Source of the DNA: Sphingomonadaceae bacterium PASS1
GTDB lineage: Bacteria; Pseudomonadota; Alphaproteobacteria; Sphingomonadales; Sphingomonadaceae
NCBI GenBank assembly: GCA_002255985.1
Contig: NKIR01000005.1
Location: 62,001 to 126,000 of the forward strand
DNA: 64,000 nt
Direction of reading: 5' to 3'
A program made the position numbers and the translations under genes. The notes beneath the pieces were generated by a model that saw nothing but the letters and a program-made list of their open reading frames with translations, searched no databases and had not been told where the DNA came from. Positions 33,434-36,013 of this stretch are shown here, in pieces. Within the stretch, counting starts at the first letter, position 1; each line of letters starts with the position of its first letter.

Positions 33434-34429
33434 CTAACCCATTCGCCATTTCTTCCACAAATGCCGCGCTAGCATCAATGGCGGCATGCGGAGCCAATGC
33501 GAGCGCACATAAAACAACAATCGTAAAAAGGGGCGCGTTCCCCTGCCCCACGCGTCGCGCGCCGTGAAACGCTTGAGGTAAAATCGGTCCTGCCAGTGCT
33601 TGGTCCGCCAACCGCGCGGTATTTCTGTTCCGTACACGAGATGCGCCAAACGGGCGGCAAGGTGGACCGCTGGCCACAACCCATGATGCGTTGCGCGTAA
33701 TTGGAGTTCTGACCAGAAATCGTCAGCAGAAAATTCGTCCAACAGACAGTGAATATCCCACAGATTGCGCAGGCCCCCGTCCAATTCCCCATCGGCAAAC
33801 AGATGCGCCGCGCTGTGGATCACCATGTCGGCATGCGCAAAAACATATAGACCGTTGTCGAGCAGAACAGCCTTCGCCATCATAGACACGGCATCAGGCT
33901 TTGGTTTCGCCGTCAGCGGCAGGATATTATGGTGTACATCAATCATGCGGTCGCGATCCTTGTGGATCAGCGGAGGCAGCTCATGCATGTGGTCGCGATA
34001 ATAGGCATCATCATAAGGGTCGGGCTTTACCCATTCCCAACCCGCGGCGAGCAACGCTTTCTCGGTCGCAGACAAGGCATCGCGCGCAACCATAATGTCA
34101 AGGTCGCCAATATGCCGGCCTTCGGAAGCCTTCAGCCCAGCAGCGGCATAAGCCGTGCCCTTCATCAGGACGACCGTGCTTTCAATGTCGGCAAGCGCGC
34201 GGCGGGCGCAGTCCGCTTCCCACAAGGCTGCGCGCCTTTGATATCCTGCGTTGATGCGCGCTTCATTAAGGATGCCGGCTATCTCCGGCGGAACGGCAAT
34301 GCCGTTTAATCGGCGTGCGACTGTTCCCAGCAATTGCTCGGCACGCGCAATGGAAACCAGCGCATTCCAAGCGTCTGCATCATAGCTCGCAGTCGTCTCA
34401 GGGCACCGCAATAAGCCGATAAGGATCAT
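33434..34429 (-). CDS. Nucleotidyltransferase-family protein (NTP_transf_5-like) of an HprK/PqqD module
   Basis: VVLMKGTAYAAAGL...GRHIGDLDIMVARDAL, MIDVHHNIL; follows HprK-like gene. Start may be 34459. Confidence 0.82.
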   Translation of the reverse strand: MILIGLLRCPETTASYDADAWNALVSIARAEQLLGTVARRLNGIAVPPEIAGILNEARINAGYQRRAALWEADCARRALADIESTVVLMKGTAYAAAGLKASEGRHIGDLDIMVARDALSATEKALLAAGWEWVKPDPYDDAYYRDHMHELPPLIHKDRDRMIDVHHNILPLTAKPKPDAVSMMAKAVLLDNGLYVFAHADMVIHSAAHLFADGELDGGLRNLWDIHCLLDEFSADDFWSELQLRATHHGLWPAVHLAARLAHLVYGTEIPRGWRTKHWQDRFYLKRFTARDAWGRGTRPFLRLLFYVRSHWLRMPPLMLARHLWKKWRMG

Positions 34430-34440
34430 GCCGTCGACGT

Positions 34441-35295
34441 TCACGTAAGCGCATCCCAAAGCTGGTTCACCAGCATCAGCGCTTCGTCGCCGTTGCGATA
34501 GTCGATGGCCCGCGCCGGAACGGCTTTTACAAAGCCGGTAAGGGCGCGAAACCCGGATTCACCCAACGCAACATAGTTTGTGGACGCTTGCGTCAGCCGC
34601 GCGAACACCTCGCTTGGCGCGACGGGCCGTACGGCGGCGTCAAATCCGAAGCTTGGGAACAAAAGCAACGCGGGCCGCGCTGGTACGCCCATTGACTGCA
34701 CAGCGTCGCGGGGCGGGACCAGATGACGAATGTCGCCCTTTGGTGTGCCGCGCATGAGCGGTCCGAACCGGTCAGCAGCAACCTGCGTTTGCATCTCATC
34801 AATAGCTTCGTTTTTCAGGCTGATCAGACGTGGGAATGGCATGGCTTCGCCTGTCACCAGATCCAGAAGAACAAATTCATCGCCCATGAAGCGCCAGCCC
34901 ATATGCCCAAGCATGGCAGACAATGTCGACTTACCTGATCCGGATTCGCCAGTCATGATAAGCGCTTTGCCGTCTTTCTCCACTGCGCTGGCGTGCAGGA
35001 GTAAATGGCGTCGCCACCCCAGAGCCATTTGCACGTTCATTGCCATTTCCCCTGCCAGCAAAGCGAACGCGAGCGGAAGTGGCGCCGCGTCGGGCAACAT
35101 AAAATCGCCATTAATTGCGACCGAAGGGCGGATGTAGCGCCTTAAAAAACTAACCGACTCAAGACGCACGGTATAATCGGTTATCGTTGGTGTCGGATAA
35201 TCGCGATATAGTTCGGCCAGCGCCCGGATGGGGCCTTCCCATACCGATCCAATGCGGAACCTAGCCGGCCCCACCTGAACGCGAAATTCATGCAC
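34441..35295 (-). CDS. HprK-related kinase (HprK-rel-A type)
   Basis: LLLHASAVEKDGKALIMTGESGSGKSTLSAMLGHMGWRFMGDEFVLLD (Walker A and HPr-kinase-like core). Confidence 0.85.
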   Translation of the reverse strand: MHEFRVQVGPARFRIGSVWEGPIRALAELYRDYPTPTITDYTVRLESVSFLRRYIRPSVAINGDFMLPDAAPLPLAFALLAGEMAMNVQMALGWRRHLLLHASAVEKDGKALIMTGESGSGKSTLSAMLGHMGWRFMGDEFVLLDLVTGEAMPFPRLISLKNEAIDEMQTQVAADRFGPLMRGTPKGDIRHLVPPRDAVQSMGVPARPALLLFPSFGFDAAVRPVAPSEVFARLTQASTNYVALGESGFRALTGFVKAVPARAIDYRNGDEALMLVNQLWDALT

Positions 35296-35590
35296 GAACG
35301 CGCTCCACTATTCCTAGTTCGGCCATTTCCTCAAGGCGGGCGAATATGATAGCCTCGACATCATCGACGTCGAATAGCGCTGCCAGGCACCGCACAATAT
35401 CGGCAGCGGCCATCGGCGCGGTACCCATGCATGCCAAAATCTGCGGCACGGGCTCTGCAACGATATGTGTTGTACCCGACCGCCGGTGATAGATGACCGT
35501 GAGGGCATCTAGTGGCTCAGTGATCAGTTGCGCGTTCTCGGCACGCAAATAGATTATCGGTAGTGCAGGCATCTTGCGACAATAGCGCAT
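35288..35590 (-). CDS. PqqD-family (RRE-like) protein of an HPr-rel-A-type system
   Basis: LDALTVIYHRRSGTTHIVAEPVPQILACMG...LVIVERV-like PqqD winged-helix pattern (about 100 aa); overlaps the HprK-like start. Confidence 0.78.
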   Translation of the reverse strand: MRYCRKMPALPIIYLRAENAQLITEPLDALTVIYHRRSGTTHIVAEPVPQILACMGTAPMAAADIVRCLAALFDVDDVEAIIFARLEEMAELGIVERVRA

Positions 35591-35608
35591 CCATTGTTAA
35601 TTTCGGGT

Positions 35609-36013
35609 TTAGCGCGCCATTTGGAGGGAGGCGAAGCAGGTGAAGCCGCTTTGCCCGCTTTGCAGCCTGCGGATATAATTTACATAAGCCTGATTCTGTT
35701 CGTAACTTGTACCCGGCAGGCTGCGGCCTTGCAGCGCCGCCTTCACCTGTTCGCCGGTAAATTTCTGGCCATTTGCAGGAAACGAACCTGGGGTGTCGCG
35801 GCGAACAAGCTTACCATAAGCGTCAATGTTCCTTCCGGTACCATGCGGCCCGGGAACGCGAATTTCGCAATTTAGGACCGATGCCGCCGATTGAGCAAGC
35901 GCTGGCCGAACGGATACGATGGCCGACGCAGTGACCGCGCCCAGCATGAGCGCTCGGCGGCGCGTTGCCGCGCTGCTCAAGCCAGCATCAGGGTTCTTTT
36001 CTGCATCTTCCAT
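35609..36013 (-). CDS. Tat-signal exported hypothetical protein, first gene of the PqqD/HprK/NTase operon
   Basis: ATRRRALMLGAVTASAIVSVRPALAQS twin-arginine signal; two Cys in the mature part; 18 nt upstream of the PqqD-like gene, same strand. Confidence 0.65.
   Translation of the reverse strand: MEDAEKNPDAGLSSAATRRRALMLGAVTASAIVSVRPALAQSAASVLNCEIRVPGPHGTGRNIDAYGKLVRRDTPGSFPANGQKFTGEQVKAALQGRSLPGTSYEQNQAYVNYIRRLQSGQSGFTCFASLQMAR

What the first reader, a model, noticed from the sequence alone, without database searches (positions are those of the whole stretch)
33434..36013. Compact operon: Tat-exported protein, PqqD-like protein, HprK-like kinase, nucleotidyltransferase
Seen directly: four same-strand genes with gaps or overlaps of about 20 nt or less. 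The order is a 134-aa Tat-signal protein, an approx. 100-aa PqqD/RRE-like protein, an HprK-like ATPase with Walker A GESGSGKST, and a nucleotidyltransferase. Established knowledge: PqqD-like/RRE domains bind precursor peptides. HprK-like kinases and nucleotidyltransferases are lasso-peptide tailoring enzymes that phosphorylate or add further phosphates to precursors. 'HPr-rel-A system' families are named in TIGRFAM-type models, but as far as I know their substrate is unknown. Inference: this is a RiPP-like or protein phosphorylation/nucleotidylation system without lasso cyclase or protease, and the co-encoded Tat protein is a candidate substrate.
Basis: partly seen in the sequence, partly recalled or inferred. 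Interest (0 to 1): 0.85.

Follow-up and report, generated by a model that had tools for sequence, protein, structure and literature searches.

The report
Tat-exported protein with dedicated phosphorylation operon
Next to three enzymes that in other bacteria tag small peptides with phosphate or sugar-phosphate groups, many proteobacteria carry a highly variable exported protein with a matching recognition leader and a conserved serine near its end, which makes it the probable, so far unannotated, substrate of this enzyme set.

Summary
Four minus-strand genes (Tat protein 36013-35609, PqqD-like 35590-35288, HprK-rel-A 35295-34441, PF14907 nucleotidyltransferase 34459-33434) form a compact operon. 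The kinase and PqqD-like protein pass NCBI's cut-offs for the 'HPr-rel-A system'; the PqqD-like protein has the RRE fold. The Tat gene is a fixed fourth member of that system. In 37 genomes of the genus it is present in exactly the 19 that have the kinase, once unlinked. Across Pseudomonadota a Tat-leader gene adjoins 141 of 147 HprK-rel-A loci. Those scanned match no Pfam or NCBIfam family; most are mutually unalignable but share a Tat leader with an embedded P-x-x-x-[TS]-L motif, a Cys just after the cleavage site, and in most a tail motif [ST]-C-x-x-S (Ser at C+3: 43 seen, 7.8 expected). Best reading: a RiPP-like system in which the Tat signal doubles as RRE leader, HprK phosphorylates the tail Ser (S129), NTP_transf_5 extends it, and Tat exports the disulfide-closed product. 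The nearest known systems are LPPs (Bacillota, 2026) and pseudomycoidin, but peptidase, ABC exporter and their leader motif are absent. Substrate identity is strongly inferred; chemistry is untested.

The parts
35609..36013 (-). Tat-signal precursor protein (134 aa), proposed substrate
   Evidence: same 19 of 37 genus genomes as the kinase; adjacent to the module across the phylum; no known family
35894..36013 (-). Tat leader, residues 1-40, T-R-R-R-A-L-M-L-G ... V-R-P-A-L-A, cleavage expected after A40
   Evidence: Sequence; R19, G25, P37, A38, A40 invariant in 38 homologues; TatC present in the genome
35624..35641 (-). Tail motif T125-C126-F-A-S129-L; S129 is the proposed phosphorylation site; C126 proposed to pair with C49 (35867-35869)
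   Evidence: C49, T125, C126, S129 invariant; [ST]CxxS enriched in 62 non-redundant precursors; even Cys count
35288..35590 (-). PqqD-like discrete RRE (peptide-binding chaperone), TIGR04353
   Evidence: AlphaFold model pLDDT 91; Foldseek best hits TbiB1-leader complexes, PbtF RRE, TruD, TfuB1
34441..35295 (-). HprK-related kinase A, TIGR04352
   Evidence: H101, Walker A G121-K122-S123-T124, D139 invariant in 16 diverse members; matches the HPr kinase nucleotide site in PDB
34924..34950 (-). Walker A motif GESGSGKST of the kinase
   Evidence: Sequence
33434..34459 (-). NTP_transf_5 nucleotidyltransferase (PF14907); start TTG 34459 or ATG 34429
   Evidence: K100-G101, G114-R115, D119-x-D121, E160, H176 conserved in 99-100% of 67 sequences
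36074..36090 (.). Possible operator GTCTATATGTGGGACA between the Tat gene and phoR
   Evidence: Only such site in the 64-kb window; kept upstream of the Tat gene in the genus members examined, also where phoR is not the neighbour; function not tested

Best explanation
This is a RiPP-like protein-modification and export operon. The Tat protein is the precursor. Its Tat signal, which carries extra conserved positions, doubles as the leader bound by the discrete RRE (PqqD-like protein). The RRE presents the precursor to the HprK-related kinase, which phosphorylates, possibly polyphosphorylates, the conserved Ser of the C-terminal [ST]-C-x-x-S motif (S129 here). The PF14907 nucleotidyltransferase then adds a nucleotidyl or sugar group to that phosphate. 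The modified protein is exported by the general Tat system, the leader is cut after A-L-A, and C49-C126 form a disulfide in the periplasm, giving a closed small protein with a modified tail. Shown: the four-gene association, co-occurrence, shared leader and tail motifs, RRE fold, retained catalytic residues. Inferred: binding, site, chemistry, order of steps, disulfide. The biological role of the product is unknown; I expect a cell-surface or secreted envelope function because many beta/gamma loci adjoin exopolysaccharide glycosyltransferase genes.
For: Families over cut-off. Genus co-occurrence 19/19 with the kinase versus 0/18 without, for both Tat gene and nucleotidyltransferase (Fisher p 6e-11, not corrected for relatedness). 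G005 keeps the Tat gene beside phoR although pqqD-hprK-ntf lie 1.4 Mb away. Tat-leader gene adjacent in 141 of 147 loci with an over-cut-off kinase and at least 700 bp upstream; the Tat criterion fires on 80 of 2280 background ORFs. In 62 precursors below 50% identity: twin Arg in 62, P-x-x-x-[TS]-L in the leader of 50; Ser at Cys+3 in the last 40 residues 43 versus 7.8 expected, 0 of 1000 shuffles; 38 of 38 tail-motif precursors have 2 or 4 Cys, 103 of 103 without redundancy filter. RRE fold. Catalytic residues kept. Precedent for the same enzyme trio: LppB/LppK/LppN with Ser phosphorylation (PMC13381572) and PsmK/PsmN phosphorylation plus hexose on the phosphate (PMC9266682, PMC8498205).
Against: No binding or modification was measured. 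20 of 62 non-redundant precursors lack C-x-x-S in the last 40 residues, many of them a larger Cys-rich group, so the site may differ there. In paeninodin the modified Ser is the last residue and in LPP it is Ser3 of the core; here it is usually a few to about 25 residues from the end. Partial Mantel tests show the precursor covarying with the RRE beyond the kinase, but core and leader alike, so they do not single out leader binding. In six loci no adjacent precursor was found (one of them is G005). LppN gave no product in the published test, so the nucleotidyltransferase step is the weakest part.
Confidence: 0.62

Rival explanations
1. The Tat protein is the RRE-guided substrate, but the tail C-x-x-S motif is structural (disulfide) or a post-export sorting or anchoring signal; the kinase and nucleotidyltransferase act on another residue.
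For: All tail-motif proteins have even Cys numbers, so Cys conservation is explained by disulfides; group B precursors lack the tail motif but have a Cys/Ser-rich stretch right after the leader, such as QCSLSGN, and LPP is modified near the core N-terminus.
Against: Ser at Cys+3 is as conserved as Cys itself while flanking residues vary; a disulfide does not need it. The tail is outside the confident core of the model, as expected for an accessible modification site.
Confidence: 0.22
2. The kinase and nucleotidyltransferase modify a different target (an HPr/PTS-like protein, a lipid or polysaccharide), and the Tat protein is only an exported partner of that pathway.
For: Many beta/gamma loci sit beside exopolysaccharide glycosyltransferase genes and exosortase genes are commoner in genomes with the kinase (32/61 versus 50/338); the window locus lies next to glmU/glmS and phoR.
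Against: A dedicated RRE needs a peptide with a leader, and the only conserved leader in the loci is the Tat one; the Tat gene is retained even when unlinked. Exosortase is missing from about half of the carriers.
Confidence: 0.12
3. A decayed or partial lasso-peptide or LPP cluster that has lost its cyclase, peptidase or transporter.
For: Shares RRE, HprK-like kinase and NTP transferase with them (PMC13381572, PMC8498205).
Against: The same four genes are conserved together across the phylum, and in the genus under purifying selection; the precursor has a Tat leader, not the lasso or LPP leader motif.
Confidence: 0.03

Closest known systems
HPr-rel-A system (NCBIfam TIGR04352 HprK-related kinase A, TIGR04353 PqqD family peptide chaperone)
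   Same: Kinase and PqqD-like proteins are members by curated cut-offs.
   Different: No substrate family over cut-off was found in NCBIfam or Pfam for the Tat proteins; no paper in the library names the system. I could not read the models' comment text.
Linear polyphosphorylated peptides, LPP (Bacillota; PMC13381572, 2026)
   Same: Discrete RRE + HprK-like kinase + NTP transferase, variable-core precursors, no macrolactam cyclase, often in polysaccharide loci.
   Different: LPP has the SpI-type peptidase LppS, an MsbA-like exporter and a YxxPxVLxHQxIxFETxxS leader; here the leader is a Tat signal and there is no peptidase or exporter gene at the locus. The paper does not mention Proteobacteria or Tat.
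Paeninodin and pseudomycoidin lasso peptides (PadeK, PsmK/PsmN)
   Same: HprK-like kinase phosphorylates a Ser at the C-terminus; nucleotidyltransferase homologue PsmN adds hexose to the phosphate.
   Different: No B2 protease, no lasso cyclase, much larger substrate with probable disulfides, Ser not terminal.
SynChlorMet cassette (ScmC HprK-like) and HprK-rel-B/GAK cassette
   Same: HprK-like; weak model hits.
   Different: Scores 26-27 bits against cut-offs of 125-200; different partner genes, from general knowledge.

Membership tests
HPr-rel-A system | HprK-related kinase A over TIGR04352 cut-off | tested here: met
   216.2 bits, cut-off 200
HPr-rel-A system | PqqD-family chaperone over TIGR04353 cut-off beside it | tested here: met
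   54.9 bits, cut-off 35
RiPP recognition element (RRE) | RRE winged-helix fold (three strands plus three helices) | tested here: met
   Model pLDDT 91; best PDB matches are TbiB1, TfuB1, PbtF, TruD RREs, probability 1.00, TM 0.56-0.69, E 3e-3 to 3e-2; sequence profile hits TfuB1 and TbiB1
RiPP recognition element (RRE) | Binds a precursor leader | not testable with these tools
   No complex prediction or binding assay available
HPr-kinase-like Ser kinase | Catalytic His, Walker A and Asp | tested here: met
   H101, G121-K122-S123-T124, D139 invariant in 16 members; aligned with HPr kinase 2qmh
NTP_transf_5 (PF14907) | Profile match and G-R...D-x-D metal site | tested here: met
   168 bits; motif residues 99-100% conserved
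Tat substrate | Twin Arg, uncharged hydrophobic stretch, A-x-A cleavage site | tested here: met
   Sequence and alignment; note that Pfam PF10518 does not detect it
LPP (Bacillota) | Discrete RRE, HprK-like kinase and NTP transferase together | tested here: met
LPP (Bacillota) | SpI-type peptidase LppS and MsbA-like exporter in the cluster | tested here: not met
   Flanking genes are gph/glmU/glmS and phoR/pst
LPP (Bacillota) | YxxPxVLxHQxIxFETxxS leader motif | tested here: not met
   Absent from the Tat leaders
Lasso peptide (paeninodin type) | B2 leader peptidase and macrolactam cyclase | tested here: not met
   None recognisable among the genes at the locus

The most novel reading that the evidence does not exclude
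A phylum-wide class of RiPP-like products in which a Tat signal peptide itself serves as the RRE leader, linking a dedicated Ser phosphorylation and nucleotidyl or sugar addition in the cytoplasm to export of the already modified, hypervariable, disulfide-closed protein; cores range from 18 to about 200 residues.
Probability: 0.5. Interest if true: 0.88.

Novelty: new variant of a known kind. Interest (0 to 1): 0.77.

Why it matters
NCBI models name a system without a known substrate family; here the substrate, its leader and a single candidate residue are proposed from comparative data, which turns an open question into one mass-spectrometry experiment. If right, it extends phospho- and glyco-phospho RiPPs to Pseudomonadota, shows a secretion signal reused as a modification leader, and explains thousands of 'hypothetical protein' entries (3180 relatives of this one protein alone).

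Tried and rejected
No paper in the held library names HPr-rel-A, TIGR04352/3 or PF14907, combines PqqD with exosortase and kinase, or describes a Tat-leader RiPP kinase system. Foldseek of the Tat protein model found no credible PDB relative (best E 2; mean pLDDT 63.5 with a core of about 85). No PDB relative of the nucleotidyltransferase by sequence. Exosortase as an obligate partner was rejected: only 32 of 61 carriers have it, and in this genome it is on another contig. Flanks of several gamma/beta loci (L164, L171, L146) look like ordinary housekeeping genes, so the polysaccharide link is not universal. The Mantel test did not separate leader from core. Sub-cut-off HprK hits (L062-L066) have no precursor and were excluded.

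Full report
Observation. The kinase and PqqD-like proteins pass the curated cut-offs of NCBIfam TIGR04352 and TIGR04353, the 'HPr-rel-A system'; the last gene is PF14907 NTP_transf_5; the 134-aa Tat protein matches nothing in Pfam or NCBIfam. The nearest named relatives of the Tat protein are hypothetical proteins of Sphingorhabdus, so the window is from that group or close to it.

Co-occurrence. I searched 61 genomes of the genus and order. In the 37 of the genus, HprK-rel-A over cut-off is in 19; PF14907 and the Tat protein are in exactly the same 19 and in none of the other 18. Fisher p is 6e-11; relatedness makes this optimistic, but presence and absence match one for one. In G005 the Tat gene stays beside phoR while pqqD-hprK-ntf sit 1.4 Mb away, and the Tat gene is still there. 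Within the genus the Tat gene is under the strongest purifying selection of the four: dN/dS 0.045 versus 0.054 (kinase), 0.125 (nucleotidyltransferase), 0.245 (PqqD-like) against G025.

Wider synteny. In most other families of the order BLAST finds no clear relative of the window Tat protein, but the ORF upstream of pqqD is again a Tat-signal protein. The same holds in loci from class- and phylum-wide genome searches and in 80 named loci (Sphingomonas, Sphingobium, Emcibacter, Massilia, Thioalkalivibrio, Thiohalocapsa, Candidatus Accumulibacter and others). Counting loci with an over-cut-off kinase and at least 700 bp upstream, 141 of 147 have an adjacent Tat-leader ORF (the automatic list was corrected by hand for wrongly picked or missed ORFs: L092 removed, L069, L083 and L093 added; in L083 the gene is divergently oriented, in L093 the core is only 18 aa, STQCDTATASCLDSFNGL). 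The six without are L026 (G005, gene elsewhere), L053, L085, L086, L092 and L160. The automatic Tat criterion fires on 80 of 2280 background ORFs in the same loci. PqqD-like ORFs were recognised in 75 of the 80 named loci and the nucleotidyltransferase in 66, with many of the rest at contig ends.

What the precursors share. I reduced 133 precursors to 62 below 50% identity. All have twin Arg; 50 carry P-x-x-x-[TS]-L inside the hydrophobic stretch, in the frame RRxLLKxxAAxxAPVIxTLxSGxAxA; the Sphingomonas/Sphingorhabdus branch has VSVRPALA instead. Such fixed positions exceed what Tat export is generally thought to need (established knowledge), so I infer that the leader is also read by the RRE. 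Near the C-terminus 42 of 62 have C-x-x-S in the last 40 residues; Ser at Cys+3 occurs 43 times against 7.8 expected and Ser at Cys-1 33 times against 8.3, with no other offset enriched. Every precursor with the [ST]CxxS tail has 2 or 4 Cys, 38 of 38 non-redundant and 103 of 103 in all, one always shortly after the cleavage site and one in the tail. That is the mark of disulfide-bonded exported proteins (inference). Between these anchors the sequence is hypervariable, including Gly-Asn-rich and Asp-rich inserts. About a third belong to other groups (Massilia, Thioalkalivibrio and others) with a larger Cys-rich body and often a QCSLSGN-like start; none of ten diverse precursors has a family over cut-off.

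In the window protein the invariant residues among 38 relatives are R19, G25, P37, A38, A40, S45, C49, G67, Y113, I114, G120, G123, T125, C126 and S129. The AlphaFold model has a fairly confident small domain (about residues 50-120) and a low-confidence tail holding S129; no PDB fold matches.

The enzymes. The PqqD-like protein models at pLDDT 91; the best PDB matches are the lasso RRE TbiB1 bound to leaders, and further PbtF, TruD and TfuB1, all RRE-containing, and a profile finds TfuB1 and TbiB1 by sequence. The kinase keeps H101, the Walker A motif and D139 in 16 diverse members and aligns with HPr kinase over the nucleotide site. The nucleotidyltransferase keeps KG, GR and DxD in 99-100% of 67 sequences plus a conserved C-terminal R-x-H-x-x-R-M-P not covered by the Pfam match.

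Known relatives. LPPs of Bacillota use a discrete RRE, HprK-like LppK and NTP transferase LppN; LppK puts several phosphates on one Ser of LppA; deletion of LppN changed nothing in the test host; clusters lie in capsule loci and have a signal-peptidase-like LppS and an MsbA-like exporter (PMC13381572). Pseudomycoidin's PsmK phosphorylates the C-terminal Ser and PsmN adds one or two hexoses to that phosphate (PMC9266682, PMC8498205). The window operon shares the trio but fails the defining LPP features (peptidase, exporter, leader motif) and the lasso ones (protease, cyclase). It works like them and is not a member of either; it is a member of HPr-rel-A. The LPP paper has no occurrence of Proteobacteria, Pseudomonadota or twin-arginine.

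Mechanism and confidence. Substrate identity of the Tat protein: about 0.8. Tail Ser as the site: about 0.6. Nucleotidyl or sugar addition to the phosphate: about 0.45. Export by Tat after modification follows from Tat exporting folded proteins (established knowledge) and TatC being present. The operon's place between phoR/pst and gph/glmU is old in the order (phoR found in 58 and gph in 52 of the fetched loci); beta/gamma loci are often beside glycosyltransferases but not always.

Limits. The statistical tests ignore phylogeny. The Mantel test shows that precursor and RRE covary beyond the kinase but not that the leader does so more than the core. I could not read NCBI's comment text for the two models, so curators may already suspect a Tat substrate.

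Noticed in passing
window 36074-36090; L177:5651; L043:7649; L041:5486: A GTCY-N6-GGGACA inverted-repeat-like site, the only one in the 64-kb window, is conserved upstream of the Tat gene in the genus members examined, even where phoR is not the neighbour (L043); in some it is a perfect TTGTCC-N7-GGACAA palindrome. Possible operator of an unknown regulator.
   Followed up: partly
L177:5770-6225 and L046 (genome G005): The Tat gene stayed next to phoR while pqqD-hprK-ntf lie about 1.4 Mb away; both are kept.
   Followed up: yes
window 28600-33370 and 36155-41330: The operon lies between glmS/glmU/gph and phoR-pstS-pstC-pstA; the phoR and gph neighbourhood is conserved in over 50 fetched loci.
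   Followed up: partly
window 30440-31054 (minus strand): A PIN-domain-like protein preceded by a ribbon-helix-helix-like protein, resembling a VapBC-type toxin-antitoxin pair, between glmS and glmU.
   Followed up: no
L139, L146, L151, L168, L172 upstream of hprK: A second precursor class with a larger Cys-rich body containing a C-x-P-G-[YF]-W-like motif and a QCSLSGN-like start after the Tat leader; no family over cut-off among those scanned in Pfam or NCBIfam.
   Followed up: partly
L093, about 500 to 350 bp upstream of hprK: Smallest precursor: a Tat leader followed by only 18 residues, STQCDTATASCLDSFNGL, close to a classical RiPP core.
   Followed up: no
L062-L066: HprK-rel-A-like kinases below cut-off in other alphaproteobacteria, without a Tat precursor nearby; a different HprK-like family with unknown partner genes.
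   Followed up: no
L142:3873-4715: A protein with a PEP-CTERM-like tail directly upstream of the precursor gene in Sedimenticola, fitting a link to exosortase or polysaccharide loci.
   Followed up: no
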